Part shown: in pieces, positions 9,759 to 31,382 of the stretch
Layout of the letters: the number at the start of each line of letters is the position of its first letter
Position numbering within the stretch: position 1 is the stretch's first letter
NCBI RefSeq assembly: GCF_000243415.2
Contig: NZ_KI912270.1
Location: 6,529,837-6,593,836 of the forward strand
Direction: 5' to 3'
Source: Mycolicibacterium tusciae JS617
Lineage (GTDB): Bacteria > Actinomycetota > Actinomycetes > Mycobacteriales > Mycobacteriaceae
DNA: 64,000 nucleotides
The notes under the pieces: model-generated
Told to the model about the DNA's origin: nothing
Seen by the model: the letters and a program-made list of their open reading frames with translations, nothing else
Database searches by the model: none
Program-made: the position numbers and the translations under genes

Positions 9759-11059
9759 CACGCGGCCTCCGGCACGGAGACGATCACATGTGCGTTCGTG
9801 CCGCTCATACCGAACGCCGTCACCGCGGCGAGCCGTTGTCCATCGGCTGCGGGCCACGGGGTGAGTTCAGTGGCCAACTGCAAACCTTGCTTATCCCAAT
9901 CGATTTCGCGGCTGGCCTCATTGGTGTGCAGACTCGCGGGCACGGCGCCGCGCTCGGCGGCGATGAGCACCTTGGCCAGGCCAAGGCCGCCGGCAGCGGC
10001 TTGGGTGTGGCCGATGTTCGACTTCACCGACCCGAGCAGCGCGCCGTGGCCCGGTTGGGTGGCGCCGTAGGTCTGCGCAAGCGAGATCAGCTCGGTGCGG
10101 TCGCCGAGCCGGGTTGCGGTGCCGTGGCCTTCGACCATGCCGATGTCTTCGGGCCGAACCCCGGCCTGCTCGAGCGCGCGCCGGAACAGCCGCGCCTGCG
10201 CCGGACCGCTTGGGGCCGTCAGCCCGACCGAGCGACCGTCCTGGTTCAGGCAGGTCGCTCGCAACTCGCCGAGTACATGACGCCCGTCGCGCAATGCTGC
10301 GGACCGACGCTGCAGCACGAACATCGCTGCGCCCTCGGCCCATACGGTGCCGCTGGCCTGCGCGCTGTAGGGACGGCAGTGGCCGTCGTCGGACAAGGCG
10401 TGCTGCTTGGAGAACTCGACGAAGAAGCCGGGCGAGCCCATCACGCACACGCCACCTGCCAAGGCCATCTCGCAATCGGATGACCGAATCGCCTGCGCGG
10501 CGAGGTGAACGGCGGTCAGCGTCGATGAGCACGACGTATCGATGGTCAACGCGGGGCCGGTCAACCCAAAGGTGTAGGCGATCCGGCCCGATACCGGCCC
10601 GAGCGCGGTGCCTGGCATCAGATGACCGGTGAGATCGGAGAATTCGGCCAGATCGGGGCCGTAGCCCATGGTGGATGCCCCGACGTAGCAGCCCACATCG
10701 ACGCCGGCGAGATCGTCGGGGTTGATCCCGGTGTTCTCCAGTGCACGCCAGGCCACCCGCAACGCGACGCGCTGCTGCGGATCCATCGCGACGGCCTCGC
10801 GCGGCGAAATGCCGAAGAATTCCGGGTCGAAAGTCGCCGCGTTGCAGAGAAATCCGCCGAGGTCATGGATGGGTTTGAATCCGTCACGGTGCGAACCGTC
10901 GAGTACCTTGCGGACCGACCAGTCGCGGTCGCGCGGGAAGGGGCTCAAGCCCTCACGCCGTTCGGACAGCAACGCCCAGTAGGCGTCTGCGGTGTCGATC
11001 CCGCCGGGCGCCTCAATCGCCATACCGGAGATGACGATGGGGTCCGCATCGCTAGACAT
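9758..11059 (-). CDS. mbtC: Mycobactin ketosynthase MbtC
   Basis: A stand-alone beta-ketoacyl synthase of 433 residues (M. tuberculosis MbtC is 444). The catalytic triad is visible: cysteine in TSCSSTLTAVH, histidine in EGHGTATRLGD and histidine in SNIGHTQAAAG. It condenses the acyl units carried by MbtD. The ATG at 11059 is preferred because the protein then begins shortly before the conserved PIVISGMAIEAPGG segment and the start overlaps the mbtT stop by 8 bases. A longer in-frame reading from 11149 adds a Ser/Thr/Arg-rich segment that lies inside mbtT. Confidence 0.93.
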   Translation of the reverse strand: MSSDADPIVISGMAIEAPGGIDTADAYWALLSERREGLSPFPRDRDWSVRKVLDGSHRDGFKPIHDLGGFLCNAATFDPEFFGISPREAVAMDPQQRVALRVAWRALENTGINPDDLAGVDVGCYVGASTMGYGPDLAEFSDLTGHLMPGTALGPVSGRIAYTFGLTGPALTIDTSCSSTLTAVHLAAQAIRSSDCEMALAGGVCVMGSPGFFVEFSKQHALSDDGHCRPYSAQASGTVWAEGAAMFVLQRRSAALRDGRHVLGELRATCLNQDGRSVGLTAPSGPAQARLFRRALEQAGVRPEDIGMVEGHGTATRLGDRTELISLAQTYGATQPGHGALLGSVKSNIGHTQAAAGGLGLAKVLIAAERGAVPASLHTNEASREIDWDKQGLQLATELTPWPAADGQRLAAVTAFGMSGTNAHVIVSVPEAA

Positions 11060-11864
11060 TGTTGACCAGCTCCGCGACGGCATCGATGTGCTCGTTGATG
11101 TAGAAGTGCCCGCCCTCGAAGAGCGACAGGGTGAACGCGCCGCCGGCATGGGTTGCCCAGCGGCGCAGCATGTCCTGGCTCACCCGGTGGTCGTCGCGGC
11201 CGCCAACGGTGTGGATGTCGGCACGTAGCCGCACATCGTCGTCGCACGAATAGCGGTTGAACGCCAGATAGTCGGCGCGCACGGCCCGGACGAGGAGGTC
11301 AACGAAGTCCTCATCGGCGAGAAGCCGTTCATCAGTACCGCCGAGATCGACCATGTTCTCGATCACTTCGGCGTCGGCGGTGGGCAGGCGCGGCGATGTT
11401 GCGATCGTGCTCGGCGCCTGGCTGGCCGAAACCCATAGCCGCGAAACGTCGGCACCGCGGGCTTCTGCGACACGGGCGAATTCGAACGCGATGACGGCGC
11501 CCATGCAGTGGCCGAAGAGTTTCAGCGGCCCGAGCCGGTCCCAGTCCCCCGCGTCGAACAACTGCGCGGCCAGCTCTTCGACAGTTTCTGGAGCGGGGTG
11601 GGTGAGCCGGTCAGCTCGTTGCGGATACTGCACGATGTAGACGTCGTCGCCGCTGGCCGCCAACGCTGCCGCGAAGGCGCGGTAGGCCGCTGCGGCACCA
11701 CCGGCATGGGGGAAGACGACGGTCGCACCGACGGATGTCTGTCCCGCGGACCGTTTGATCCAGGGCGCGAAGGTCAATTGGCTCTGTTCGTCAATCATCG
11801 GCAGGTCGGCGATGTGTCGGCGATGGTCGGTGGTCGAACGGTCTGCGCACCGCAGCGAGAACAC
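11052..11864 (-). CDS. mbtT: Stand-alone thioesterase of the mycobactin locus (MbtT-like)
   Basis: A 270-residue alpha/beta-hydrolase thioesterase of the type II (editing/release) class. It has FPHAGGAAAAYRAF near the N terminus, the nucleophile elbow GHCMGAV and a C-terminal catalytic histidine in EGGHFYIN. M. tuberculosis MbtB carries a fused C-terminal thioesterase, but MbtB here ends after its carrier domain, so this gene probably supplies that function in trans. The GTG at 11864 is preferred over the ATG at 11798 because a strong ribosome binding site (GGGAGGAA) lies 7-8 bases before it. It is the first gene of mbtT-C-D-E-F and begins 21 bases after a pair of iron boxes. The symbol is by analogy and is less sure than the function. 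Confidence 0.8.
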   Translation of the reverse strand: MFSLRCADRSTTDHRRHIADLPMIDEQSQLTFAPWIKRSAGQTSVGATVVFPHAGGAAAAYRAFAAALAASGDDVYIVQYPQRADRLTHPAPETVEELAAQLFDAGDWDRLGPLKLFGHCMGAVIAFEFARVAEARGADVSRLWVSASQAPSTIATSPRLPTADAEVIENMVDLGGTDERLLADEDFVDLLVRAVRADYLAFNRYSCDDDVRLRADIHTVGGRDDHRVSQDMLRRWATHAGGAFTLSLFEGGHFYINEHIDAVAELVNNV

Positions 11865-12881: not shown

Positions 12882-12891
12882 GCGCGAACTC

Positions 12892-14481: not shown

Positions 14482-14609
14482 ATCTCGAACATAGGTGGCG
14501 CTCCACGGGTTTTCGTGGGTGCCTTTCTGCTGTTCAACGGTAGTTTCTGGTGTGAGAGTGCGGTGTTCGGCGTGTCCGTGAAGAGGTGAGGGACGCGCAC
14601 GCGGTGGGC

Positions 14610-16007: not shown

Positions 16008-19000
16008 CTAGCCGCCGGCCAATTCGGACAGCACGTCCGTGCTGTCCATCCCGGCGACCTCCAGGTAGACCTCGGCGACCATATTGAGGCGGTCGGCGTC
16101 CGGTTCGCGACTGAGAAGTCGATCTGCCAGGTTGGCCACGCTGCGCGCCGCGAACATTTCGGTGACCAACACCGTCGGCGTATCCAGCCAATCGCGAACA
16201 CGGGCGATCACCTGGGTGGCCAACACGGAGTCACCACCGAGGGAAAAGAAGTCGTCGTCGATCCCCATCGCATCGCCGACCACACCGAGCACGTCGGCGA
16301 CGATCGCGACCAAGGCGGATTCCAGCGGCGTTGACGGTGGTCGGAAGACATGTGCCGCGGGCACTTCGGCTTCGGCCAATTGCCGGGCAACAGCCTTGCG
16401 ATCGATCTTGCCGTTCACGGTGAAGGGGATCTGGTCGCTCACGACGATGACCTTGGGAATCATGTGTGCGGGCAGCAATTCGGTCATTGCGGCGGCAATG
16501 GATTGCGCATCGACTCTTGGGTCATCGGTGCGGACCAGCGCGGCCAGCACATCCGGTTCTCCTTCAATCACGGCCGCGACTGCGGCGTCGACATGCGGCG
16601 CGCGTTTGAGCGCCCCCTCCACTTCACCGAGTTCGATCCGGTAGCCGCTGATTTTGATCCGATGATCGATGCGGCCGACGAACTCCAGTGTCCCGTCTGC
16701 TTGGTAGCGGACGAGATCTCCTGTCCGATACCAAGTTCGACCGTCGCACTCGACGAACTTCTCGGCCGTCAAATCAGGCCTGCCGCGATAACCGCGGGCG
16801 ATGCCGCGTCCGGAGAACCACAGTTCGCCCGGTACCCAATCCGGGCAGTCGGATCCGTCAGCGGCGACCACGCGGCACGCGTTGTTCGGGAACGGAGTGC
16901 CGTACGGGATCGAGGTCCAGTGCGCAGGCGGGTCGTCGACCTCGCAGATCGTGCCGTGCACCGCGGTTTCAGTCGCACCGCCAAGGCCCGCCGACCGTAC
17001 CGCGGGCGCTGACTTGCGTAGTTCCCGAATGAGTTCGGGGCGCACCCAGTCACCGCCGAGAAGCACCACCCGCAGGGTCGACAGCCGGTTACCGCCGACC
17101 TTCAACAGCATGTCGAGCCAGCCGGGCATCCAGTTCAGGAACGTTACGCGGTGCTCCTGGATCAGATCGGCCCACGCATCGGGGTCCCGGCGTTGGATCT
17201 CGTCCACGACGACGACCGCACCGCCCGCTCGCAGCATGGCGAAGATCTCCAGCACCGACATGTCGGCTTCCAGCGAGGCAAGCGCCAGGCTCCGGTCCGT
17301 CGAGCCCAATTGGTAACGGCTGTCGATGAACTCAACGGTGTTCATCACCGCGTCGTGCGTCAGCTCAACACCCTTGGGCACGCCGGTCGACCCCGACGTG
17401 AACAACACGTAGGCCAAGTCGTGCGGGTCAGCGGGGGTGGGCTCGGCGTCGACAGGGCGCCGCATCGCGGCCGCGGCGGTGATGACCGGCACCGCGGCCT
17501 CCACCGGGTCGGCGCCGCCGCAAAGCAGCACCGCGGTTATACCGCTGGATTCGAGGATGCGACTGGTCCGGTCGGAAGGCTGATCGGTGGCGATCGGAAG
17601 GTAGGCGGCACCGGCGGCCAGAATCCCAAGCACCGCGGGTATCTGCTCACCACACTTGGGGCCGATCAACGCAACGAGGTCACCGGGCCGAACCCCGTTG
17701 CAGCGTAGAGTTTCCGCGACCGCAACCGCTCGCGCGCGCAGCTCGCCGTAAGTCAGGTCGCCGTCGTCGCTGAACACCGCCGGAGCGTCGGGCGCAGTCA
17801 GTGCATTACGGAAGAACCCGTCGTGGATCGCCTCTCCACTCGGTGGCGTGGTCACACTGTTCACCGCGTCACGGATGGCACGGCCGGCCTGGGGCACTGC
17901 GGGCGGATCGGGAACGTCCCACGCCCCGTCGTCGGTGGCCAGCCGGGTCAACTCGGCGAGGTGGTAGGCGAACATCGCATCGGCGACACCCGGCCGGAAC
18001 GCGTCAACGCGGACGTCCCAGTTGATCATAAGTCCGGTGGCCAGGGGCGTGGCCTGTGCATCGATGAGCACCTGCGGGCCTTGGGAAATGGTCCATACCG
18101 GAGCACCGAACAGATCGGTCACCTCGCCCGCGAACAGGTCGCCGAGTCCTAGCGCACTGGTGTAGACGATCGGCGCGAGGGTCTGGCTGCCACGGTGCCG
18201 TCCCAGGTCGCGCAGCACGGACAGGCCCGAGTAGCTCGAGTGACGAGCGGTGTTGTGCAACGTTTCCTGCACGGCGCGTGTCCGCTCGGCCGGCGTGGTG
18301 GCCCGGGTCAGGTCGATGTCGAGCATCAGTGACGAGGTGAAGCAGCCGACGAGTTTCTCGACATCGGGATGGAACGGTTCTCGACCGAACATCGGCAGGT
18401 TGAGCAGGAACCGCGAGCCGCTCGACCACCGAGCCAGCGCGTTCGAATACGACGCTGCGACGGCCATCGCGGGCGTGAACCCGCGGCGGTGCGCGGCCGC
18501 GAAGAGTGCGTCCCGTGTCTCGACATCGAAGATGTGCCAGAGTCGGACGCTGCGGCGGGGTTCGGCCTGTTCGGCCAACGGGACCAGCGGCAGCGCAGGC
18601 GATTCGGGCAGCTCGGGTAGCCGGTCGGCCCACCACTGCCGGTCCTCGTCGGAGGGCCCCGGATCAGCGGCTGCCAACGCGGCCCGGTACCGGCGATAGG
18701 TGTAGCCCAGTTCGGGCAGTTCCCCGCCGCGGTAGAACACCGCCAGGTCGGCCATGAACTTGCGGTAACTCACGGCGTCGGCTGCGTTCATGTCCATGTC
18801 GACGTGCAACCGCGTGCGGCCATCCGGACGCAGCGACAGGCTCAGCTCGAGGACATCGCCGTCGAGTAGTTGATGTGACTTCTGGTGACGAATGGTCTGT
18901 AACCGCTGCTCAGCGGCTTCGGCATCCAGCTCGCGCAGGTCATAGACGGTCACGGGAAGGCCGCGATCGCCGATCCGCTGGGTACCGTCCGGAAGGATCT

Positions 19001-19487
19001 CCACGCGCAACATCGGGTGGCGCGCAACCAGTTTCGCTGCGGCGTCGCGGAGGCGGTTCGCGTCGACGCCGTCACCGTCGAACTCCACGTAAAGATGGGC
19101 GGCGACGCCGCCGAGTTGCTGATCGTCGTTGCGGCCCAGCCACATCGCGTGTTGCATGGGCGCCAGCGGGAACGGATCGCCGGCGTCACCGGTCTCGTTA
19201 CCGTCGTCGGCCGGGTCGCCGAGCTCGGCCGAATGGGAGGCTTCGGACCGTTGCGCCACCAGCGCAGACCATGCCGCCACCGTCGGGTTCTCCGCCAATG
19301 CGGCGAAGTTGACGTCGATTCCCTGTTTACGCCACCGCCCCGACAACGACATCATGCGGATCGAATCGAGACCGGAGGCAATCAAGTCGGCGTCGGGGTC
19401 GACATCGCCGGGGGTCACCCCGAGGAGTTCGGCAACCTCCTCGTGGACGGTGCGGCCGGATGCACCGTTGTTGTCTGTCGCCCCCAC
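16008..19487 (-). CDS. mbtB: Mycobactin NRPS MbtB (ArCP-Cy-A-PCP, no thioesterase)
   Basis: A 1159-residue synthetase that receives the aryl acid from MbtA and forms the aryl-oxazoline from serine or threonine. The order is an aryl carrier domain (GLDSIRMM, phosphopantetheine Ser42), a cyclisation domain with the DxxxxDxxS signature (DMNAADAVS), an adenylation domain (VLFTSGSTGVPKG, WYRTGDLVRY) and a carrier domain (SLGGDSVLATQV). M. tuberculosis MbtB is about 1414 residues with a terminal thioesterase; here the protein stops about 60 residues after the carrier serine. The GTG start has GGAGG 6-7 bases upstream. Unlike in M. tuberculosis, it stands alone, with an accessory block between it and the next mbt gene. 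Confidence 0.92.
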   Translation of the reverse strand: MGATDNNGASGRTVHEEVAELLGVTPGDVDPDADLIASGLDSIRMMSLSGRWRKQGIDVNFAALAENPTVAAWSALVAQRSEASHSAELGDPADDGNETGDAGDPFPLAPMQHAMWLGRNDDQQLGGVAAHLYVEFDGDGVDANRLRDAAAKLVARHPMLRVEILPDGTQRIGDRGLPVTVYDLRELDAEAAEQRLQTIRHQKSHQLLDGDVLELSLSLRPDGRTRLHVDMDMNAADAVSYRKFMADLAVFYRGGELPELGYTYRRYRAALAAADPGPSDEDRQWWADRLPELPESPALPLVPLAEQAEPRRSVRLWHIFDVETRDALFAAAHRRGFTPAMAVAASYSNALARWSSGSRFLLNLPMFGREPFHPDVEKLVGCFTSSLMLDIDLTRATTPAERTRAVQETLHNTARHSSYSGLSVLRDLGRHRGSQTLAPIVYTSALGLGDLFAGEVTDLFGAPVWTISQGPQVLIDAQATPLATGLMINWDVRVDAFRPGVADAMFAYHLAELTRLATDDGAWDVPDPPAVPQAGRAIRDAVNSVTTPPSGEAIHDGFFRNALTAPDAPAVFSDDGDLTYGELRARAVAVAETLRCNGVRPGDLVALIGPKCGEQIPAVLGILAAGAAYLPIATDQPSDRTSRILESSGITAVLLCGGADPVEAAVPVITAAAAMRRPVDAEPTPADPHDLAYVLFTSGSTGVPKGVELTHDAVMNTVEFIDSRYQLGSTDRSLALASLEADMSVLEIFAMLRAGGAVVVVDEIQRRDPDAWADLIQEHRVTFLNWMPGWLDMLLKVGGNRLSTLRVVLLGGDWVRPELIRELRKSAPAVRSAGLGGATETAVHGTICEVDDPPAHWTSIPYGTPFPNNACRVVAADGSDCPDWVPGELWFSGRGIARGYRGRPDLTAEKFVECDGRTWYRTGDLVRYQADGTLEFVGRIDHRIKISGYRIELGEVEGALKRAPHVDAAVAAVIEGEPDVLAALVRTDDPRVDAQSIAAAMTELLPAHMIPKVIVVSDQIPFTVNGKIDRKAVARQLAEAEVPAAHVFRPPSTPLESALVAIVADVLGVVGDAMGIDDDFFSLGGDSVLATQVIARVRDWLDTPTVLVTEMFAARSVANLADRLLSREPDADRLNMVAEVYLEVAGMDSTDVLSELAGG

Positions 19488-19496
19488 ACTGTCCTC

Positions 19497-19538
19497 CCAG
19501 ATTAGGCTGCCCTAACTAACCCGGCGAGGCTACCTTAT
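19497..19538. promoter_or_regulatory. Divergent mbtB/mbtA iron-box region
   Basis: The 95-bp divergent gap holds a good iron box, CCAGATTAGGCTGCCCTAA (19497-19515, 14 of 19 to consensus). A weaker second half-match, CCCGGCGAGGCTACCTTAT (19520-19538, 11 of 19), begins 23 bases further on. The strong box starts 9 bases before the mbtB GTG and overlaps its leader. IdeR bound here would control both mbtA and mbtB. Confidence 0.78.
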
Positions 19539-19582: not shown

Positions 19583-21244
19583 ATGAGCACCGGTCTAGAC
19601 CCTCAGCAGAGTGACCTGACCACGGGTTATGTTCCGTTTCCCGCCGACCGCGCCGAGGAATACCGTCGGGCGGGCTACTGGACCGGCCGCAGCCTGGACT
19701 CCATCCTGACCGACGCCGCTGCGCAGTGGCCCGACCGCGCCGCTGTGGTGGATCCGGACGTCTCCTACACGTTCGCCGAACTGGATGCCCGCGCCGACCG
19801 GATTGCGTCGGCATTGGCGCATCGCGGTATCGCGACGGGCGACCGGGTGATGCTGCAGCTTCCGAACTCCGCTCAGTTCGCCGTCGCGTTGTTCGGACTC
19901 CTGCGCGCGGGCGCTGTACCGGTGATGTGCCTGCCGGGTCACCGCTACGCCGAACTCAGTCACTTCGCCGATGTCAGCGGTGCGGTCGGTCTCGTCGTTG
20001 CCGACCGGGTTGCCGGATTCGACTACCGCGAACTCGCCCAGGCTCTGGTGAACGACAATCCGCGGTTGAGCCACGTGTTCGTCGACGGAGAACCCGGACC
20101 TTTTCAATCCTTCTCGTCCTTATCGGAGCTGACCGATTTCGACGGTCCGGTCCGCGACCGCGTGCCGGTCGACCCGGGTGCGCCGGCCCTGCTGCTGGTG
20201 TCGGGCGGGACGACCGGACTGCCGAAGCTGATTGCGCGCAGCCACGACGACTACGTCTACAACGCCACCGCGTGCGCCCAGGCGTACGAAATGACCGGCG
20301 AGGACGTATATCTCGTCGCGCTGCCCGCGGGACACAACTTCCCGCTGGCCTGCCCTGGGCTGCTGGGCTCCATGACGGTCGGCGCCACGACAGTGTTCAC
20401 TGCCGACCCCAGCCCCGAGTCCGCCTTCGCGGTAATCGACCGGCACAAGATCACCGTCACCGGACTCGTCAATGCACTGGCCAAGGTGTGGACCCAGGCC
20501 TGCGAGTGGGAACCCCTGCTGCCGACGTCACTGCGCGTGGTTCAGGTGGGCGGTTCGCGGATGACACCCGAGGAGGCCCGTTACATCCTCGACGGGTTGA
20601 CCCCTGGACTGTCCCAGATCTTCGGCATGGCAGAGGGAATGCTCAATTTCACCCGGATCGGCGATCCCTTCGACGTCGTGGTCAACACCCAAGGCCGGCC
20701 GATGTCGCCGCACGACGAGATGCGCGTGGTCGACGAGGCCGGCCGAGAGGTTGCGCCCGGTGAGGAGGGTGAACTATTGGTGTGCGGTCCTTACACGCTC
20801 AACGGCTACTACCGGGCGGATGAGGCGAACGCACGGTCGTTCAGCCCCGACGGTTTCTACCGCTCCGGGGATCGCGTGCGCATCTTCGCCGACGGTGAGA
20901 GAGCGGGCTATGTAGAAGTCACCGGGCGCATCAAGGACGTCATTCATCGCGGCGGGGAGACCGTATCGGCCTCCGATCTAGAGGAACACCTGTTCGCCCA
21001 TCCCGCAGTCTACGCCGCGGCAGCAGTCGCCCTTCCCGACGATTATCTGGGCGAAAAGATCTGTGCTGCGGTCGTATTCAGCGGGTCGCCGATCACACTC
21101 GCCGAACTGAACCAGTTCCTCGACGAACGGGGAGTATCCGCGCACTCACGGCCCGATGTGCTCGCGCCGATGCCGGCGCTGCCCAAAACCGCGGTCGGCA
21201 AGGTGGACAAGAAGAAGGTCGTGGCGGACCTCGTGCCGTCCTGA
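19583..21244 (+). CDS. mbtA: Aryl acid-AMP ligase MbtA (mycobactin starter activation)
   Basis: A 553-residue stand-alone adenylating enzyme that activates the aromatic starter acid and loads it on the MbtB aryl carrier domain. ANL-family motifs are present: LLLVSGGTTGLPKL, the aryl-acid pocket segment GHNFPLACPG, GMAEGMLNFTRIGDP, DGFYRSGDRV and the C-terminal catalytic lysine in AVGKVDKKKV. The M. tuberculosis enzyme activates salicylate. Given the adjacent 6-methylsalicylate synthase-like PKS, this one may have to accept 6-methylsalicylate (inference). It diverges from mbtB and converges on the PKS with a 9-base gap. Confidence 0.93.
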   Translation: MSTGLDPQQSDLTTGYVPFPADRAEEYRRAGYWTGRSLDSILTDAAAQWPDRAAVVDPDVSYTFAELDARADRIASALAHRGIATGDRVMLQLPNSAQFAVALFGLLRAGAVPVMCLPGHRYAELSHFADVSGAVGLVVADRVAGFDYRELAQALVNDNPRLSHVFVDGEPGPFQSFSSLSELTDFDGPVRDRVPVDPGAPALLLVSGGTTGLPKLIARSHDDYVYNATACAQAYEMTGEDVYLVALPAGHNFPLACPGLLGSMTVGATTVFTADPSPESAFAVIDRHKITVTGLVNALAKVWTQACEWEPLLPTSLRVVQVGGSRMTPEEARYILDGLTPGLSQIFGMAEGMLNFTRIGDPFDVVVNTQGRPMSPHDEMRVVDEAGREVAPGEEGELLVCGPYTLNGYYRADEANARSFSPDGFYRSGDRVRIFADGERAGYVEVTGRIKDVIHRGGETVSASDLEEHLFAHPAVYAAAAVALPDDYLGEKICAAVVFSGSPITLAELNQFLDERGVSAHSRPDVLAPMPALPKTAVGKVDKKKVVADLVPS

Positions 21245-21253
21245 CCCCCCGTT

Positions 21254-24200
21254 TCAGGACACCGGAACTTCGCGGGGCTCCTGCGAAACCTCCGGCGATG
21301 CGAGGAGTTCGGAAATCCGCTCTGACACGGCGGCGACCGTCGGGTACTCCCACAGCAGTGTCGGCGGCAGCGACAGCCCGGTCTGCTTCTCCAGTTGGCG
21401 CAGCAGCCCTACCGTCATGATGGAGTCGACACCGATCTCCACCAGCGGCAGGTCCGTCTCCACATCGCCCTCCGGCAGTCCGAGCTGGGCCGACACCGCG
21501 GCGACGACACACTCGACCACCCGCTGCGGGTCCGGTTCGCCGTGGTCTCCTACGAAGCTACCCAGCACTGAGTCCGACCCGGCCGACTCGTCGACCTCAG
21601 CAGGTGCCACGTCAGCGAGCATCGGCACGGCCGATGCCGCCGGAAGCAACGGCAGTACAACGATATTCGGCTTATCATCGCGCATGGCCAGGTCCAGCGC
21701 ACGGACCGCTTCGTCGGCGGCGATGGTACCCATGCCGAGCGCGTCGAGTTGCGCCGCAACGAAGCCCGACGTCGAACCCATACCCAACCCCCGCCATGCA
21801 GTCCACGCGATGCTCACGGTGCGGTCTCCGAGACGACGGCGGTGACGGGCCATGACGTCGAGGAAGGAGTTGGCGCACGCGTACGCGCCCTGTCCGGGAA
21901 AGCCCGCGAGATATCCGCACGACGAGAACAACACCATCCAATCCAGCTGTTCGGGCGGAAAGACCTCGTGCAACGTCAATGTGCCGTCGACCTTCGGGTG
22001 CATGGCCGTTTCGAACTCTGCGACACTCGTGTTGACAAGCAGAGCACCGGCTTCCACGCCGGCGGCATGGATGACGCCCCGTACCGGCGGCAGCTGCCGT
22101 AGCGCGGCGCGCAGCGCGTCGGCGGCGCCCGGCGCGCCGATGTCGAGCGGCAGGACGTGTACGGACACGCCACGTTCCTCGAGTGCGGCGACCGTGCGGA
22201 TCAGTTCGGAATCGCCTGCCTCGCGCCACTGCGACCGATCGGGCATTCCCGTACGAGACACCAGCACCAACCGCCGAGCGCCAATGTCTGCGAGCCGCTG
22301 TGCCATCCGGAGCCCGAGAACACCTGTGCCGCCGGTGATCAGGTACGTGCCACCCGCCGAGCACTGCATCGGTGTGCCGGTCCCGCGCCCGGCGAACGCC
22401 AACCGGGCCGCCTTGGCGTCCCCGTCGCGCATCACAACGACCGGATGACCGCGCAGCGAGGCCAGTGCGCCGACCGGCAGGTTCGCATCGCCCACGTCGA
22501 GCACGCCGCCGAAGATCTTGGGATGTTCGGCGGCAGCAACTCTGGCCAGGCCCCACAGCGGCGCGTGGACCACATTGCCGCCTTCGTGTACTCGCTGGGT
22601 GAGCACCCATTCGCGTGCCTTCGCACCGCGGTCGAGCAGGTGCCTCAACGTCTGCATCACGACGGCAACCGACTTCTGCGGCGAATCATGGGCGCCGGGC
22701 AGAACCAGGACCACGGCGTCGTCCAGTTCCGTGTCGGTCGCCGCGATCTCGGACGGTTCGGCGTATGTCGCATACCGCACGTCGGCCGCGTCGAGGTCGC
22801 GGGCGACGAAGCGTCGGGTGTCGGCGTCTCCGCCGACGACCGACACCGCCGACGGTCGATCGTCCTGCTGCCATCCGACTGAGTGCCACGTGACGTGATG
22901 CAGCATCCGCGAAAGGTCGCTGCCTGCGGGGTTTTCCAGTTCCTCGAACGACATCCCGGTGAGCGATGCGCGGACGGCGCCCGACTCGTCAGCAATCAGC
23001 ACGTCGGTGGTGGTCGTCTGAGGCCGGCGTAGGACATGCAGCACTGCCACCGCGGGCGGACGGCCATACACCTGCACACGCTCTATCCGTGCCGGCATCC
23101 GCAGTCGCGGCGGCCCGTCGAAGATGGTGGAGGCAGCCGACGTCGCGGCATCCAGCAGTGGCGCCCACGTCGCGGGCTCGGTCCGCTCGCCGTCGGCCGC
23201 AACCCGCGCGATCAACTCACCGTCGCATCCGCCCGATGTCGCCGCCGGGGCGGCTCCGTGGCCCGATGTCGCCGCCGGGGCGGCTCCGTGGCCCGATGTC
23301 GCCGCCGGGGCGGCTCCGTGGCCCGATGTCGCCGCCGGGGCGGCTCCGTGCCGCAATTCGAGGATCTCCCAACCGAATCCCATTTCAGCCACTCCGAGTG
23401 TCGCCAGGGTGTCCACGACGTGGTTCGACGGCAGGGTTTCGAGGCACCGTGCCTTCGCGGCGGACTCGTCGAGCACCTGCCCCAGGAGATCTTCGATGTC
23501 GTCGTCGGCCGCCGCCACGGCACTGCTGTGCGTAAGCCAGCCACCCTCATCGGCAGAGTCGTCGTCCACCAACCGGGTCGACAGCGTGAGGCCGCGGTCC
23601 TGGAGGACCACCTGCACGTCGCGGGCCCGGCTCGGTGCGACGGGCGTCCGCAGCCGGACGTCGACGAGGTCGGTGCCAGATCGGTCGGAGCGGGTGTTCA
23701 GATTGGCGACGGCACCCAGGAACGTATTCAAAATCACTGCAGCAGGGACGATTTCCGTGCTCTGCACGGGATGGTTCCCGGGGTACGGCCGGTTGCTCAG
23801 GTCCAGACGTGTCTGCCACATGGTTGATGCGACGGCTCCGGTTACGTCCATCCGGCCGCCGAGCAGAGTGTGACTGTCGACGTCGTGCACGCCGCGGCCG
23901 CCGGGAGGAGGTGTCGGTGTGCGCCAAAAATGCCGATGTTGCCACTGTGTGACCGGCAGGGCGTCGGCCCAGGGCGCGGATGCCTCGATGCCGTGGTCGA
24001 CGGGCGCGCCGTTGCAGTACAGGGAACCCACCGCCGTGGCGACCGACTGCAACTCCGGACGGTCGCGGCGAAGCACCGGAACAACCCCGTGCTCGTCGAT
24101 CCCCGCATGGGTCAACGTCTCGACAATCGAATGCGCGACCACCGGATGCGCGGACACCTCCAGGAACAGCCGATGACCGTCCTCGGCCGCGGCCGTCACG

Positions 24201-26554
24201 GCTTCCGCGAAGCGCACGCGATCACGCAGATTGGCCACCCAGTAGTTCTGGTCGCGTGGTGCGGTCGAGCGCAGATCGGCTAGGGCCGTTGTGTACAAAG
24301 GGATTTCGGCGGAACGAGGTGGCGGTAGCGCGGCAGTGAGCCGGAAGAGTTCTGCGGTGAGAGCGTCCATTGCCGGGCTGTGAAACGCCACGTCGGTGTT
24401 GACGCGGCGGATCATCACGCCTTCGTCGGTCCAGATTTGGCAGATCTGCTCGACGGCGCCGACGGTGCCGGACACCACGGTCGACGCGGGTGAGGCACTG
24501 ATTGCCGCAACCACATTGCGATGCCCGCGCAACCGGCGTTCAGCTTCGGCGAAGGGCAATCGCACCAATGCCATCGCGCCGTTGCCCATCACCGACTGGA
24601 ATCCGCGCGCCCGGTAGCACGCCACCGCGGCGCCCACCGTCAAGTCGAAGACACCCGCCGCCACGCAGGCGGCGACTTCACCGACCGAATGACCGATCAC
24701 CGCGGCCGGTGTCACTCCCCGCTCGCGCAGCACGGCGGCGAGGCCCACCTGCATCGCAAACGTCAAGGCCTGCACCCGGTCTGTACCGCCGAGCGCGCCG
24801 GCGCCAAGTGCGTCGCGGGCGCAGAATCCCAGCTCCTTGCCGAACACCGGATCGATCGAGTCGATGACCGCGGCGAACGCGGGCTCACGCTCGAGAAGCT
24901 GCTGGCCCATTCCCGCCCAGTGTGATCCGTGCCCGGAGAACACCCAGACTGCGCCGTCGGCTGCTGCCGGCAGTGCGCTGCCGGTCACGACGAGCGGATC
25001 GGCCTCGTCGTTAGCGAGTGCGTTCAACCCCGCCACCACGCCGTCGATATCCTCGGCCACCACTGCAGCCCTTGCCGATTCGTGTGAGCGGCGCATCCAT
25101 GCCGTGGCTGCCACGCGATCGATTCCGTCGTCACAGGCGTCCAGGTGATCGGCCATCGCCTTGGCCTGGCTGCGCAGCCGGGTGAAGGACCGTGCCGAAA
25201 TCGGTACGACCGTCGGTGAAGGGTGCGCGGTATGGGTGGGCGGCGTCCGAGCCGCCGGCGCTTCTTCGAGCAGGATGTGCGCGATCGTGCCGCCGTAGCC
25301 GTAGCTGCACACCGCGGCACGACGCGGTGCGCCGTCGGTGCGCACCCACGGTTCGACTGACGTCGGCACCTGCAGCCCGCTACTCACCCAATCAACGGCA
25401 GACGTGAGGGTTTTCAAGCCCGCAGTTGGCGGGATGGCTTCGTGGTGCAGCGCGAGCGCGGCCTTGATGAGGCCGACCACACCGGCCCCACCCTCGAGGT
25501 GGCCCACGTTCGGCTTGACCGAGCCGATTCGGCATGGCGCGTCCGCCGGACGATCGGCCCCGTAGACCGAGGCCAGCGCCCGGACCTCGGTGGGATCGCC
25601 GCTCGGGGTTCCGGTCCCGTGCGCCTCGACGAAGTCGACGCTCGCGGGTGGCACACCCGCCGATTGGCATGCGCGCGCGAACATGTCGGCTTGGGCGTCG
25701 CCGTTGGGCGACATGATGCCCACTGTGCGGCCGTCCTGCGCGATCGCGCCGCCACGCACGAGGGCGAGCACTCGGTCACCGTCGCGAACCGCGTCGGCGA
25801 GGCGTTTGAGCACGACCACGGCCGCACCTTCGCCGCGGCCGTAGCCGTCGGCGCTCGCGTCGAACGTCTTGCAGCGCCCGTCCGGAGCGGTGGCGCCGGC
25901 CTCGTCGAGCACCCGGGTCAATCCCGGACCGATCAGCGCGCTGACGCCCCCCGCCAAGGCCAGCGATGTCTCGCCCGCTCGAAGCATCTGGCATGCCTGA
26001 TGCACCGCCACCAGCGATGCGGCGCATGCGGCGTCCAGCGCAACGCTTGGACCCCGCAGATCGAGCAGATGAGACACGCGGTTGGCGATTCCGCACAGTG
26101 ACGTGCCGATGCCGGTCCAGGCCTCGATGCCCGGCAGGTCTTCCATGATCAGCTTGCCGTAGTCGTCGGAGTTGACGCCCATGAGAACCGCGGTGTCGCT
26201 GCCTGCCAGCGCCCGCGGCGGTACACCGGCGTGTTCGAGTGCTTCCCAGCTCACTTCGAGCGCAAGCCGCTGCTGCGGATCCATCAGTTCCGCTTCACGC
26301 GGGGACACCCCGAAGAATTCGGCGTCGAACCCGGCAAGATCGTCGAGGAACGTGCCCCACCGAGTGGTCTCCTTGAGCACCGCGGCGTTGCGCGGGTCCC
26401 GGCGCAGATACGGCTCCCAGCGCTCCTCGGGTACCTCGCGGACGTCGCTTCGGCCCTCGGTCAGAAAGGTCCACAACTGCGCGGGGTCGTTGACGCTGCC
26501 GGCCAGCCGGCAGCCGATGCCGACGATGGCGATCGGTTCAGGGGAAGCGGCCAT
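21254..26554 (-). CDS. Iterative type I PKS, 6-methylsalicylic acid synthase-like
   Basis: A 1766-residue single-module polyketide synthase, close to the length of fungal 6-MSAS (1774) and bacterial relatives such as ChlB1. The ketosynthase has Cys177 in DAACAASLVAVHQ with His312 and His352. The acyltransferase has Ser623 in VIGHSVGE and the malonyl-type VAFHSP. The dehydratase/thioester-hydrolase region has HTLLGGR, PGNHPVQSTEIVPAA and WAPLLDAATSAASTIF, which are hallmark 6-MSAS segments. A ketoreductase (TGGTGVLGLRMA) and a carrier protein (Ser1711) follow; there is no enoylreductase or methyltransferase. That set makes 6-methylsalicylate from one acetyl and three malonyl units in known members. 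It occupies the mbtI position and has its own iron box, so it probably makes the mycobactin aryl cap. Confidence 0.87.
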   Translation of the reverse strand: MAASPEPIAIVGIGCRLAGSVNDPAQLWTFLTEGRSDVREVPEERWEPYLRRDPRNAAVLKETTRWGTFLDDLAGFDAEFFGVSPREAELMDPQQRLALEVSWEALEHAGVPPRALAGSDTAVLMGVNSDDYGKLIMEDLPGIEAWTGIGTSLCGIANRVSHLLDLRGPSVALDAACAASLVAVHQACQMLRAGETSLALAGGVSALIGPGLTRVLDEAGATAPDGRCKTFDASADGYGRGEGAAVVVLKRLADAVRDGDRVLALVRGGAIAQDGRTVGIMSPNGDAQADMFARACQSAGVPPASVDFVEAHGTGTPSGDPTEVRALASVYGADRPADAPCRIGSVKPNVGHLEGGAGVVGLIKAALALHHEAIPPTAGLKTLTSAVDWVSSGLQVPTSVEPWVRTDGAPRRAAVCSYGYGGTIAHILLEEAPAARTPPTHTAHPSPTVVPISARSFTRLRSQAKAMADHLDACDDGIDRVAATAWMRRSHESARAAVVAEDIDGVVAGLNALANDEADPLVVTGSALPAAADGAVWVFSGHGSHWAGMGQQLLEREPAFAAVIDSIDPVFGKELGFCARDALGAGALGGTDRVQALTFAMQVGLAAVLRERGVTPAAVIGHSVGEVAACVAAGVFDLTVGAAVACYRARGFQSVMGNGAMALVRLPFAEAERRLRGHRNVVAAISASPASTVVSGTVGAVEQICQIWTDEGVMIRRVNTDVAFHSPAMDALTAELFRLTAALPPPRSAEIPLYTTALADLRSTAPRDQNYWVANLRDRVRFAEAVTAAAEDGHRLFLEVSAHPVVAHSIVETLTHAGIDEHGVVPVLRRDRPELQSVATAVGSLYCNGAPVDHGIEASAPWADALPVTQWQHRHFWRTPTPPPGGRGVHDVDSHTLLGGRMDVTGAVASTMWQTRLDLSNRPYPGNHPVQSTEIVPAAVILNTFLGAVANLNTRSDRSGTDLVDVRLRTPVAPSRARDVQVVLQDRGLTLSTRLVDDDSADEGGWLTHSSAVAAADDDIEDLLGQVLDESAAKARCLETLPSNHVVDTLATLGVAEMGFGWEILELRHGAAPAATSGHGAAPAATSGHGAAPAATSGHGAAPAATSGGCDGELIARVAADGERTEPATWAPLLDAATSAASTIFDGPPRLRMPARIERVQVYGRPPAVAVLHVLRRPQTTTTDVLIADESGAVRASLTGMSFEELENPAGSDLSRMLHHVTWHSVGWQQDDRPSAVSVVGGDADTRRFVARDLDAADVRYATYAEPSEIAATDTELDDAVVLVLPGAHDSPQKSVAVVMQTLRHLLDRGAKAREWVLTQRVHEGGNVVHAPLWGLARVAAAEHPKIFGGVLDVGDANLPVGALASLRGHPVVVMRDGDAKAARLAFAGRGTGTPMQCSAGGTYLITGGTGVLGLRMAQRLADIGARRLVLVSRTGMPDRSQWREAGDSELIRTVAALEERGVSVHVLPLDIGAPGAADALRAALRQLPPVRGVIHAAGVEAGALLVNTSVAEFETAMHPKVDGTLTLHEVFPPEQLDWMVLFSSCGYLAGFPGQGAYACANSFLDVMARHRRRLGDRTVSIAWTAWRGLGMGSTSGFVAAQLDALGMGTIAADEAVRALDLAMRDDKPNIVVLPLLPAASAVPMLADVAPAEVDESAGSDSVLGSFVGDHGEPDPQRVVECVVAAVSAQLGLPEGDVETDLPLVEIGVDSIMTVGLLRQLEKQTGLSLPPTLLWEYPTVAAVSERISELLASPEVSQEPREVPVS
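23231..23350. repeat. Four perfect 30-bp tandem repeats inside the PKS gene
   Basis: Four identical 30-bp units (23231, 23261, 23291, 23321) with no mismatch. Each encodes ten residues (HGAAPAATSG on the coding strand), so the frame is kept. They lie in the dehydratase/thioester-hydrolase region, between the FGWEILEL segment and the conserved WAPLLDAATS segment. Perfect identity implies recent expansion, and copy number probably varies. Confidence 0.95.
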
Positions 26555-26581
26555 GTCAACTAAGCCCTGGACGCTTTGAAG

Positions 26582-26600
26582 TCTGGATAGCCTTGCCTAA
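26582..26600 (-). promoter_or_regulatory. Iron box upstream of the 6-MSAS-like PKS
   Basis: Read on the minus strand this is TTAGGCAAGGCTATCCAGA, matching the 19-bp IdeR consensus at 14 positions, including TTAGG and AGGCTA. It lies 27 bases before the PKS start codon. This ties expression of the PKS to iron limitation together with the mbt genes. Confidence 0.75.
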
Positions 26601-27947: not shown

Positions 27948-28100
27948 ATCCCATGCACCGGCGCATTCCTCGCTTTCCGTCGTCGTCGCACAACACAACG
28001 GATCACCATCGCAGAATCGTTCAATCGGCTGGCGCGAACGTGGGTTACCCGCACACTAAATCCCGGAAAGGCGTGCATCAAGCCCACGCTCGCCGTAGTA

Positions 28101-29309
28101 CTAATCAAGCAGACTGCGGACCACCGCGTCGGCCAATAGTCGCCCAGGGTCGGTGAGGATCAAATGGTCGCCGTCGCGCGTGAGCAGCCCGTCTGCGATC
28201 ACGGTCTCGGCCCGCCGTTGTTCGGCGTCGTTCAAGGTCGCCAGGGGCAGCCCGTCGCGCAACCGCACCCGCAACATGACGTCCTCGGTGTGCAGTGCGC
28301 TCGAGTCGAGCCGCTCAAAATCGGCCACCGGCAGGAGCCCGTCAGCCAGCGCCTGCGCATACACGTTGGGGTGCTTCACATTCCACCACCGGGTCGAGCC
28401 GACGTAGCCGTGTGCGCCGGGTCCGGCACCCCACCATTCGCCGCCGTTCCAGTAGCCGACGTTGTGCCGGCACTCGCCGCCGGGCAGACACCAGTTGGAA
28501 ACCTCATACCAACCCAGCCCCGCCGCGGACAGCCGCGCATCGATCAACTCGTAGCGGTGCGCGAGCTCGTCGTTGTCGGGTGCGCGGACCTCGCCGCGCC
28601 GCACCCGGCGGGCCAGCGCCGTGCCGTCCTCGACCACCAGGGCGTACGCGGACACGTGGTCGACGCGGGCCTCGACGGCGGCGTCCACCGAGCGCAGCAG
28701 GTCGTCGTCGGTCTCCCCCGGCGTGCCGTAGATCAGGTCGAGGTTCACATGTTCGAAGCCCGCTGCGAGGGCATCGCGGGCCGCCTCGAGGGCCCGGCCC
28801 GGTGAGTGCACCCGGTCCAGCACCGCGAGGACGTGCGGTGCCACCGACTGCATGCCGAGCGAGACCCGGGTGAAGCCGGCCGCCCGTAGATGCTCGAACA
28901 GCTGCGGCGAGGTGGACTCGGGGTTCGCCTCGGTGGTGACCTCGGCATCTGCGGCCAGGGTGAAATGGCTGCGTATCGCATCCAGCACCGAGGCCAGGCC
29001 GGGCCCCCCGAGCAGCGAAGGAGTTCCGCCACCGACGAACACGGTGTCGACGGCCGGAGCCGCTTGGTCGGCGACATCGGGCTGCCGCGTGGCCGCCAGC
29101 CTGTCGGCGGCCAGGGCCAACTCAGCGCGCAGCGCCTCCAGCCAGCCGTCGGGATTCGCGCCGCCCAGTTCAGCGGGGGTATAGGTGTTGAAGTCGCAGT
29201 AGCCGCAACGGGCAGCGCAGAACGGCACGTGAACATAGATGCCGAACGCGCGGCCCGGCGTCAGCGTCAGACCGGGCAGCTCGGATGCACCTGCCGTCCG
29301 GACTGTCAT
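28101..29309 (-). CDS. hemW: Radical SAM HemW/HemN-like protein
   Basis: A 402-residue radical SAM protein annotated as HemN in M. tuberculosis (Rv2388c). It has the iron-sulfur motif CxxxCxxC in FCAARCGYCDFNTY, a glycine-rich SAM-binding segment (DTVFVGGGTPSLL), LGMQSVAPHVL and the C-terminal HemN domain. Proteins of this length without the long N terminus of true HemN are generally HemW-type heme chaperones, so a direct coproporphyrinogen oxidase role is less likely. It is read away from the sulfite reductase operon. Confidence 0.9.
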   Translation of the reverse strand: MTVRTAGASELPGLTLTPGRAFGIYVHVPFCAARCGYCDFNTYTPAELGGANPDGWLEALRAELALAADRLAATRQPDVADQAAPAVDTVFVGGGTPSLLGGPGLASVLDAIRSHFTLAADAEVTTEANPESTSPQLFEHLRAAGFTRVSLGMQSVAPHVLAVLDRVHSPGRALEAARDALAAGFEHVNLDLIYGTPGETDDDLLRSVDAAVEARVDHVSAYALVVEDGTALARRVRRGEVRAPDNDELAHRYELIDARLSAAGLGWYEVSNWCLPGGECRHNVGYWNGGEWWGAGPGAHGYVGSTRWWNVKHPNVYAQALADGLLPVADFERLDSSALHTEDVMLRVRLRDGLPLATLNDAEQRRAETVIADGLLTRDGDHLILTDPGRLLADAVVRSLLD

Positions 29310-29702: not shown

Positions 29703-31382
29703 ATGACTACCGCCGAATCAAAGCCGAAGCCCGTCAAGCGTCCCAAGGCCGAGGGCCAGTGGGCGCTCGGCTACCGCGAGCCGCTCAACGCCAATGAGCA
29801 GTCCAAGAAGGACGACAACCCGCTCAACGTACGGGCGCGCATCGAGAACATCTACTCCAAGAACGGCTTCGACAGCATCGACGTCGGCGATCTGCGCGGC
29901 CGATTCCGCTGGATGGGTCTTTATACCCAGCGCAAGCAGGGGTACGACGGCACCTGGACCGGTGACGACAACACCGACATACTCGAAGACCGCTACTTCA
30001 TGATGCGGGTGCGGTGCGACGGGAAGGCACTGTCTGCCGAGGCGCTGCGGACACTCGGCCAGATCTCCATCGATTTCGCCCGGGACACCGCCGACATCTC
30101 CGACCGGATGAACCTGCAGTACCACTGGCTCGCGGTCGAGAACGTCCCGGAGATCTGGCGGCGACTGGACGCGGTCGACCTGCACACCACCGAGGCGTGC
30201 GGCGACTGCCCCCGCGGCTTCCTCGGCTCCCCCCTGGCCGGTGAAGCGGTCAACGAGGTGCTCGATCCCTCAGGGGCGCTCGAGGAGATCAGCCGCCGCT
30301 ACATCGGCAACCCGGAGTACTCCAACCTGCCGCGCAAGTACAAGACGGCCATCTCCGGTCTGCAGGACGTCGCGCACGAGGTCAACGACGTCGGGTTCAT
30401 CGGGGTCGTGCACCCCGAGCACGGGCCTGGACTGGATCTGTGGGTCGGTGGCGGCCTGTCCACCAACCCGATGCTGGCCCAGCGCGTCGGCGTGTGGGTG
30501 CCGCTGGATGAGGTCCCCGATGTGTGGGAGGCCGTCACCGCGGCCTTCCGGGACTACGGCTACCGGCGCCTGCGGTCGAAGGCACGGCTGAAGTTCCTGA
30601 TCAAGGACTGGGGCGTCGAGAAATTCCGGGAAGTTCTCGAAACCGAGTACCTCGGCCGCAAACTCATCGATGGGCCGGCTCCCGACCCCGTCAAGCACCC
30701 CATCGATCACGTCGGTGTCCAGAAGCTCAAGAACGGGCTGAATGCGGTGGGCATCGCGCCGATCGCCGGGCGGGTGTCGGGCACCATCCTGACCGCGCTG
30801 GCCGATCTGATGGAGAAGGCCGGCTCGGACCGGGCACGGTTCACGCCGTACCAGAAGCTCATCCTCCTCGATGTCGCCGACGACAAGCTCGACGAGCTGA
30901 CCGCAGGGCTCGACGCCCTCGGTCTGGCATGGCAGCCGTCGCACTGGCGCAAGAACCTGATGGCGTGCACCGGTATCGAGTTCTGCAAGCTGTCGTTCAC
31001 CGAGACGCGCACCCGCGCCCAGAGCCTGGTCCCGGAGCTGGAAAAACGGCTCAACGACATCAATGCCCAACTCGACGTGCCAATCACTATCAACATCAAC
31101 GGCTGCCCGAACTCGTGCGCACGCATCCAGGTCGCCGATATCGGGTTCAAGGGCCAGATGGTCGACGACGGCGACGGACCCGAGGAGGGCTTCCAGGTGC
31201 ACCTGGGTGGCAGCCTCGGGCTCGACAGCGGGTTCGGCCGCAAATTGCGCCAGCACAAGGTGCTCTCGACCGAACTCGGCGACTACATCGACCGCATTGT
31301 GCGCAATTTCGTGAAACAACGCGAGGATGGCGAGCGTTTCGCTACGTGGGCGTTACGAGCAGACGAGGCGGATTTGCGATGA
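29703..31382 (+). CDS. sirA: Ferredoxin-dependent sulfite reductase SirA
   Basis: A 559-residue assimilatory sulfite/nitrite reductase-family enzyme that reduces sulfite to sulfide in cysteine synthesis using siroheme and a 4Fe-4S cluster. The four cluster cysteines are visible as CTGIEFC and NGCPNSC in the C-terminal half. The N-terminal half has the substrate/siroheme pocket (RNLQYHW-like DRMNLQYHWL). It is syntenic with M. tuberculosis Rv2391, is followed by cysH and che1, and so is assigned to sulfite rather than nitrite. Its ribosome binding site is inside a hairpin. Confidence 0.93.
   Translation: MTTAESKPKPVKRPKAEGQWALGYREPLNANEQSKKDDNPLNVRARIENIYSKNGFDSIDVGDLRGRFRWMGLYTQRKQGYDGTWTGDDNTDILEDRYFMMRVRCDGKALSAEALRTLGQISIDFARDTADISDRMNLQYHWLAVENVPEIWRRLDAVDLHTTEACGDCPRGFLGSPLAGEAVNEVLDPSGALEEISRRYIGNPEYSNLPRKYKTAISGLQDVAHEVNDVGFIGVVHPEHGPGLDLWVGGGLSTNPMLAQRVGVWVPLDEVPDVWEAVTAAFRDYGYRRLRSKARLKFLIKDWGVEKFREVLETEYLGRKLIDGPAPDPVKHPIDHVGVQKLKNGLNAVGIAPIAGRVSGTILTALADLMEKAGSDRARFTPYQKLILLDVADDKLDELTAGLDALGLAWQPSHWRKNLMACTGIEFCKLSFTETRTRAQSLVPELEKRLNDINAQLDVPITININGCPNSCARIQVADIGFKGQMVDDGDGPEEGFQVHLGGSLGLDSGFGRKLRQHKVLSTELGDYIDRIVRNFVKQREDGERFATWALRADEADLR

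What the first reader, a model, noticed from the sequence alone, without database searches (positions are those of the whole stretch)
21254..26600. Iron-regulated 6-methylsalicylate synthase in the mycobactin locus
Seen: a KS-AT-DH/TH-KR-ACP protein of 1766 residues with 6-MSAS hallmark segments (HTLLGGR, PGNHPVQSTEIVPAA, WAPLLDAATSAASTIF), an iron box 27 bases upstream, and placement beside mbtA where mbtI sits in M. tuberculosis. No mbtI occurs in the window. Known: some fast growers (M. phlei, M. thermoresistibile) make mycobactins with a 6-methylsalicylate cap. Inference: this PKS makes that cap and may replace or supplement chorismate-derived salicylate. It would give a genetic basis for the methylated mycobactins.
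Basis: partly seen in the sequence, partly recalled or inferred. Interest (0 to 1): 0.9.

Follow-up and report, generated by a model that had tools for sequence, protein, structure and literature searches.

The report
Polyketide-made cap for a mycobacterial siderophore
In this environmental mycobacterium the gene that normally starts the iron-scavenger mycobactin (mbtI) is missing, and in its place sits an iron-controlled polyketide synthase that most likely makes a methylated version of the starter molecule; the same gene is found in about a third of the sampled mycobacterial species, together with a matching form of the next enzyme.

Summary
The 1766-residue KS-AT-TH/DH-KR-ACP synthase at 21254-26554(-) has its catalytic residues intact, an iron box 27 bases upstream, and lies between mbtA and hemN-nirA. 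The genome has no MbtI over the family cut-off.

Comparison strengthens the case. Among 297 sampled genomes of the genus, all 241 with MbtA have the PKS only (84), MbtI only (143) or both (14); of 56 without MbtA, 55 have neither. Where the PKS converges on mbtA, 49 of 52 loci have an iron box before it; where it follows mbtA in the same direction, 0 of 15 do, but 14 of 15 have one before mbtA. PKS-linked MbtA and MbtB form one clade, which rpoB rejects (AU p = 9e-8), with substitutions fixed in acyl-pocket motifs. The TH/DH model matches the AviM product-template domain best. Layouts suggest horizontal exchange of the locus.

Best reading: an iterative 6-methylsalicylate synthase supplies the mycobactin cap, replacing MbtI here and supplementing it in the M. 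fortuitum group. No product was measured. The chemistry was known (recalled); my searches of an open library found no paper naming the gene.

The parts
21254..26554 (-). 6-methylsalicylate-synthase-type iterative PKS (KS-AT-TH/DH-KR-ACP, 1766 aa)
   Evidence: residues C177, H312, H352, S623, H725, H928, D1135, S1544, Y1558, N1562, K1521, S1711 (roles recalled) invariant in 135 of 135 long homologues
26582..26600 (-). IdeR-type iron box before the PKS (14/19)
   Evidence: box of 13 or more in 49 of 52 loci where the PKS converges on mbtA
23231..23350 (-). perfect 4 x 30-bp tandem repeat, in-frame 40-aa insert in the TH/DH region
   Evidence: low-confidence loop between two strands of the model
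19583..21244 (+). mbtA: aryl-acid AMP ligase, PKS-linked form (N297, I346, M353)
16008..19487 (-). mbtB-like NRPS (condensation-type, adenylation, two carrier-domain matches), divergent from mbtA
   Evidence: MbtB tree
19497..19520 (.). iron box(es) in the mbtB/mbtA divergent promoter (14/19 and 13/19)
11052..11864 (-). thioesterase gene, first of the second mbt operon
   Evidence: PF00975
11886..11923 (.). two iron boxes (14/19 each) before the thioesterase-mbtC-mbtD-mbtE operon
9758..11149 (-). mbtC-like ketosynthase
6765..9857 (-). mbtD-like AT-KR-ACP protein
1568..6901 (-). mbtE-like NRPS
28101..29309 (-). hemN-like gene, synteny anchor on the far side of the PKS/mbtI slot
29703..31382 (+). 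nirA-like gene, synteny anchor

Best explanation
The gene encodes an iterative type I 6-methylsalicylate synthase dedicated to mycobactin. Under iron limitation IdeR releases the box before the gene. [quoted passage not shown] the KR reduces once; the TH/DH (product-template-like) domain with H928/D1135 helps aromatise the product and release it as free 6-methylsalicylate. The adjacent MbtA adenylates it and loads it on MbtB, giving a mycobactin with a 6-methylsalicyl cap. In this strain the PKS replaces MbtI, because no chorismate-to-salicylate enzyme is recognisable. Shown by sequence: domains, catalytic residues, predicted fold, position, iron box, absence of MbtI, co-distribution and co-inheritance with a distinct MbtA/MbtB form. 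Inferred: product identity, release by the TH domain, use by MbtA, cap of the final siderophore, iron response.
Against: No product, expression or mutant data. The PKS was not aligned with a biochemically proven 6-MSAS; nothing named 6-MSAS is among the best 60 of 240 solved-structure matches shown. The best structural match, AviM, belongs to an orsellinic-acid synthase (PMC2636887), and naphthoate-type synthases share this domain order (recalled), so the fold says aromatic PKS, not 6-MSA. N297 and M353 are absent from the 12 non-mycobacterial ligases beside 6-MSAS-type genes and from 5wm2, recalled as CahJ, so they are not a universal 6-MSA code. The window's own copy has a 40-aa insert in the TH/DH region. 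The paired test on rpoB had 4 independent pairs and cannot reach significance. 3 of 52 convergent loci and 1 of 8 loci without mbtA in reach have no box before the PKS. ChlB1 product is reported to need ChlB3 for release (PMC9573744), and no such gene showed among the neighbours scanned, so release by the TH domain is assumed.
Confidence: 0.87

Rival explanations
1. The PKS makes a different small aromatic acid (an orsellinate-, dimethylsalicylate- or naphthoate-type acid) that caps mycobactin through MbtA.
For: Iterative synthases of this bacterial group make orsellinic, 6-MSA and naphthoic moieties (PMC2636887, passages); the TH/DH model is closest to AviM's product-template domain. MbtA pocket residues differ from the salicylate form.
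Against: A KR with intact catalytic residues is present, which orsellinate synthases lack (recalled). A record named M. phlei has the PKS and M. phlei mycobactin P has 6-methylsalicylate (recalled). Cys at the DhbE-240 position and Leu at 337 fit a mono-hydroxylated ring (recalled code).
Confidence: 0.07
2. The PKS supplies 6-methylsalicylate, but plain salicylate from another route remains the main cap in this strain, so the PKS only supplements.
For: 14 of 98 PKS genomes keep MbtI. An isochorismate synthase exists in the genome (L003), and a promiscuous lyase cannot be excluded.
Against: No MbtI and no TIGR01803 match over cut-off; MbtA belongs to the PKS-linked form.
Confidence: 0.08
3. The PKS makes an unrelated metabolite and sits beside mbtA by chance or by co-regulation only.
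For: No chemistry has been done; the Mycobacterium PKSs placed next to fungal 6-MSAS in PMC2636887 were of unknown function.
Against: Linkage in 92 of 98 genomes across two orientations, complete complementarity with MbtI in MbtA-positive genomes, one shared clade with MbtA/MbtB against the rpoB tree.
Confidence: 0.03
4. The window's own copy is inactive because the 4 x 30-bp insert breaks the TH/DH region, although its relatives are active.
For: The insert adds 40 residues of low complexity.
Against: It is in frame and falls in a low-confidence loop between two strands of an otherwise well-formed model; M. tusciae (L061) carries a similar insert. Catalytic residues are kept. No other aryl-acid source is recognisable in the genome.
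Confidence: 0.06

Closest known systems
Iterative 6-methylsalicylate synthases of bacteria and fungi (ChlB1 of chlorothricin; fungal 6-MSAS; the cahuitamycin 6-MSAS)
   Same: KS-AT-DH/TH-KR-ACP on one protein, no thioesterase, conserved TH/DH segment (43-50% identity over that segment to eight relatives from Streptomyces, Actinophytocola, Amycolatopsis, Rhizohabitans and Actinomadura)
   Different: Built into the mbt locus under an iron box and paired with MbtA; no ChlB3-like transferase seen among the neighbours scanned. [quoted passage not shown] whether they are the same genes could not be checked.
AviM, iterative orsellinic-acid synthase
   Different: AviM is recalled to lack a KR; this protein has one with intact residues.
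Cahuitamycin pathway of Streptomyces gandocaensis (PMC4757757)
   Same: A 6-MSAS and a salicylate synthase (CahI) feed one aryl-AMP ligase (CahJ) of an NRPS; deleting cahI leaves only the methylated product (passages)
   Different: There the 6-MSAS is unlinked, at least about 50 kb away; here it sits in the slot of mbtI and usually replaces it.
Mycobactin locus with MbtI (M. smegmatis- and M. tuberculosis-type)
   Same: mbtB, mbtA, TE, mbtC, mbtD, mbtE, iron boxes, hemN-nirA synteny
   Different: Aryl acid from a polyketide synthase instead of chorismate; MbtA and MbtB of a separate clade.

Membership tests
6-methylsalicylate synthase (iterative type I PKS) | Single-module KS-AT-TH/DH-KR-ACP without TE | tested here: met
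6-methylsalicylate synthase (iterative type I PKS) | Catalytic residues of KS, AT, TH/DH (His, Asp), KR and ACP intact | tested here: met
   135 of 135 sequences; the Gly of the recalled DH motif HxxxGxxxxP is Ser here and varies in the family
6-methylsalicylate synthase (iterative type I PKS) | Malonyl-type AT motif (AFH) | tested here: met
   meaning of the motif recalled
6-methylsalicylate synthase (iterative type I PKS) | TH/DH region with the dehydratase/product-template (double hot-dog) fold | tested here: met
   predicted model, pLDDT 81, 31-row alignment; best match AviM product-template domain, then PKS dehydratases; the model is a prediction
6-methylsalicylate synthase (iterative type I PKS) | Clade membership with proven 6-MSAS | not tested
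   no proven 6-MSAS sequence was fetched by name; relatives were found by similarity only
6-methylsalicylate synthase (iterative type I PKS) | Product is 6-methylsalicylate | not testable with these tools
   needs expression and mass spectrometry
Mycobactin (mbt) locus | mbtA, mbtB, mbtC, mbtD, mbtE together | tested here: met
   C, D and E named by domain content and order
Mycobactin (mbt) locus | mbtI salicylate synthase | tested here: not met
   whole genome; best hit 172.7 bits against a cut-off of 325.15 and it scores best as anthranilate synthase
IdeR regulon | Iron box in the promoter, conserved | tested here: met
   consensus recalled, binding not tested

The most novel reading that the evidence does not exclude
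Mycobactin loci exist as two exchangeable chemotypes, salicylate (mbtI) and 6-methylsalicylate (PKS), each with its own MbtA/MbtB lineage. The polyketide type has moved between mycobacterial species as an mbtB-mbtA-PKS block. In some recipients mbtI was lost, in the M. fortuitum group it remained next to hemN as a tandem partner, and in a third set (G047, G126, G180) it was left behind as an iron-boxed orphan far from the mbtB-mbtA-PKS locus. The methyl cap may act as a private key that limits siderophore theft between neighbours (speculative).
Probability: 0.6. Interest if true: 0.75.

Novelty: new variant of a known kind. Interest (0 to 1): 0.66.

Why it matters
Methylated mycobactin caps have been known chemically for decades (recalled: mycobactins P and H; acetate origin in M. 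phlei), but my searches of the open library found no paper that ties them to a gene. This gives the likely gene, its distribution (98 of 297 genomes sampled), a matching MbtA form, and a simple genomic rule for predicting the cap. It also suggests that MbtI, proposed as a drug target (recalled), is absent from many species that still have the mycobactin locus, whereas MbtA is present wherever either supply gene occurs except in one genome, G273.

Tried and rejected
Chance iron box: rejected by the window-wide ranking and by the dependence on gene orientation.

Salicylate made elsewhere in the genome: no MbtI or TIGR01803 match over cut-off.

Species phylogeny alone explains the PKS/MbtI split: rejected on rpoB, but rpoB is one gene and I chose the 30 genomes by class, not at random. 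The paired sign test had 4 pairs and is not significant. Fisher p = 3.5e-22 ignores relatedness.

A universal 6-MSA pocket code in MbtA (N297, M353): rejected, because outgroup ligases keep P and L. The enrichment of class-specific columns in pocket stretches (6 of 17, P = 1.8e-4) is partly post hoc: I drew the stretches after seeing the columns, from recalled DhbE motifs.

Identity of G149 with M. phlei: its PKS is 87% identical to P0051, so not shown.

One search used the MbtI reference on the wrong strand; corrected, and only calls from 45 on are used for MbtI. A residue-level view of the model was not available. The Foldseek search of the PDB was not run; the second-look aligner was used instead (repeat the same answer).

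Full report
WHAT IS THERE. The minus-strand frame 21254-26554 encodes 1766 residues. Pfam gives KS, AT, the N-terminal half of a PKS dehydratase, KR and ACP, and no thioesterase. In an alignment of 135 sequences (the window protein and the homologues over 1650 aa among the rows of two protein searches), the recalled catalytic residues of KS, AT, TH/DH (H928, D1135), KR and ACP are invariant; the AT has the malonyl-type AFH motif. In 31 TH/DH segments, 23 mycobacterial including the window's and 8 from other actinomycetes, the same His and Asp are invariant. The window copy differs from most relatives by a perfect 4 x 30-bp in-frame repeat; M. tusciae has a similar insert.

CONTEXT. Reading along the window: mbtE-, mbtD- and mbtC-like genes and a thioesterase; an F420-dependent LLM oxidoreductase, a DUF222 protein and an ISL3 transposase; then mbtB and mbtA, divergent; then the PKS, convergent with mbtA; then an unrecognised frame, an ECF-type sigma factor, hemN-like and nirA-like genes. 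The window's four 14/19 matches to the recalled IdeR consensus lie before the PKS, between mbtA and mbtB, and twice before the thioesterase operon; a Markov model gave on average 0.5 sites of 13 or more in six simulations.

NO OTHER ARYL-ACID SOURCE. Over the whole 7.3-Mb genome TIGR03494 finds nothing over cut-off. Its three weak hits score best as anthranilate synthase, aminodeoxychorismate synthase and isochorismate synthase. TIGR01803, a chorismate-mutase-like family that by recall includes PchB, has no match over cut-off (best 27.7 bits against 73.35).

DISTRIBUTION. In 297 genomes of the genus (drawn by the tool, window genome included) the TH region is found in 98 (E <= 1e-20), MbtI in 158 (E <= 1e-90, all over cut-off) and MbtA in 241 (E <= 1e-120). 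Crossing the lists: PKS and MbtI 14, PKS only 84, MbtI only 144, neither 55. All 241 MbtA-positive genomes have at least one source; of 56 MbtA-negative ones 55 have neither and one (G273) has MbtI. PKS and MbtA lie on one contig, 1.9-15.1 kb between MbtA and the TH segment, in 92 of 98 (69 convergent, 23 co-directional); 5 are on different contigs and one (G092) has no entry among the high-scoring MbtA rows.

NAMED RELATIVES. A scan of named genomes kept 80 of 111 loci: 66 mycobacterial (for example M. neglectum, M. tusciae, M. aurum, M. vaccae, M. vanbaalenii, M. neoaurum, Mycolicibacter senuensis) and 14 from other actinomycetes. Of these 80 I tested 50 for MbtI: 6 of 44 mycobacteria have it, all of the M. 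fortuitum group (grouping recalled: M. porcinum, two M. peregrinum strains, M. septicum, M. senegalense, M. houstonense), and 1 of 6 others. Within the flanks held, 10 of the 66 have mbtI. A record named M. phlei has the PKS (P0051), and so does one named M. fortuitum (P0142). By the MbtA tree the window's nearest named kin are M. neglectum (94% identity) and M. tusciae.

IRON CONTROL IS CONSERVED. Of 86 fetched mycobacterial PKS loci, one (L159) failed the score filter and 4 were dropped because the PKS start was not covered. Of the remaining 81, 7 were duplicates of genomes already held; with the window 75 upstream regions remain. Where the PKS converges on mbtA, 49 of 52 have a box of 13/19 or better within 150 bp. 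Where mbtA is not in the locus, 7 of 8 do. Where the PKS follows mbtA in the same direction (9-199 bp gap), 0 of 15 do, but 14 of 15 have a score of 14 before mbtA. Random 150-bp stretches of the same loci, real boxes included, reach 13 in 26 of 1620.

A MATCHED MbtA, AND LOCUS EXCHANGE. On the MbtA tree (103 rows, one gappy row and 8 duplicates left out) all PKS-linked MbtA form one clade, with the M. fortuitum group nested inside. In a set of genomes chosen by class, PKS presence changes once on MbtA (29 rows, 100/100) and once on MbtB (27 rows, 100/99), but 8 times on rpoB (30 genomes); rpoB rejects a single PKS clade (p-AU 9.2e-8). Three MbtA columns are at least 95% fixed for different residues in 70 PKS-linked and 20 MbtI-only sequences: N297/P, I346/V, M353/L. 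They correspond to DhbE 280, 329 and 336, in the motifs that by recall line the acyl pocket. The 12 non-mycobacterial ligases do not share N and M, so this marks the mycobacterial pair and is not a general code.

LAYOUTS. At the slot between mbtA and hemN, species carry mbtI alone (for example L132, L134), the PKS alone (the window, L049 and many others), or both in the order hemN-mbtI-PKS-mbtA (M. fortuitum group). In three genomes (G047, G126, G180) mbtI stays near hemN with a 16/19 box, while mbtB-mbtA-PKS lies megabases away on the same contig. This is what import of an mbtB-mbtA-PKS block into mbtI-bearing genomes would leave behind; the direction is inferred, not reconstructed.

MECHANISM. 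Inferred steps: tetraketide assembly from malonyl units, a single ketoreduction, aromatisation and hydrolysis by the TH/DH domain, adenylation by MbtA, loading on MbtB, and a 6-methylsalicyl-capped mycobactin. PMC9573744 (passages) says that ChlB1 product is not released without ChlB3; here the neighbouring enzyme is an AMP ligase that needs a free acid, so I assume release by the TH domain, as described for fungal 6-MSAS (recalled).

LITERATURE. Ten full-text searches showed no paper linking mycobactin to a 6-MSAS gene. Four of them (30, 69, 76, 78) gave capped listings; the others listed every hit (1 to 3 papers each). Subscription journals are mostly not held, and one relevant paper was not available. 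Seen as passages: PMC4757757 (cahuitamycins), PMC2636887 (four Mycobacterium PKSs of unknown function next to fungal 6-MSAS), PMC9573744, PMC4810606 and PMC9505556 (no passage on methylated caps), PMC10296737 and PMC6262359 (mycobactin only in the reference lists). That mycobactins P and H carry 6-methylsalicylate and that M. phlei makes it from acetate is recalled.

VERDICT. The finding is real and its interpretation is well supported by comparison, pending chemistry. The parts belong to known families. The new points are the likely gene for the methylated cap, the complementarity with MbtI among genomes with MbtA, and the evidence that a matched mbtB-mbtA-PKS block has been exchanged between species.

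Noticed in passing
window 23231-23350; G000:C4 near 326544, 883558, 5880690, 6515532; G009:C1 near 200205: A 30-bp tandem repeat with core close to GGAGCCGCCCCGGCGGCGACATC (self-complementary GCCGCCCCGGCGGC) is dispersed at several places of this genome and in a relative. One array has landed in frame inside the PKS; M. tusciae (L061) has a similar insert.
   Followed up: partly
window 12021-15884: An F420-dependent LLM oxidoreductase, a DUF222 protein and an ISL3 transposase lie between mbtB and the thioesterase-mbtC operon; M. tusciae has a DUF222 gene between mbtB and the thioesterase too.
   Followed up: no
L218, L219, L220 (G047, G126, G180): Orphan mbtI with a 16/19 iron box near hemN, megabases from the mbtB-mbtA-PKS locus on the same contig: possible leftover of the native mbt locus.
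   Followed up: partly
L115-L128: In other actinomycetes 12 of 14 6-MSAS-type genes are followed by an MbtA-like ligase gene (the L121 record ends soon after the PKS); one record is Streptomyces sp. Tue6028, recalled as the polyketomycin producer.
   Followed up: partly
G273: The one genome of 297 with MbtI but no MbtA at the threshold used.
   Followed up: no
window 26738-27998: An ECF-type sigma factor (27432-27998; Sigma70 r2 and r4) lies between the PKS and hemN, together with a 242-aa frame at 26738-27466 without a Pfam match.
   Followed up: no
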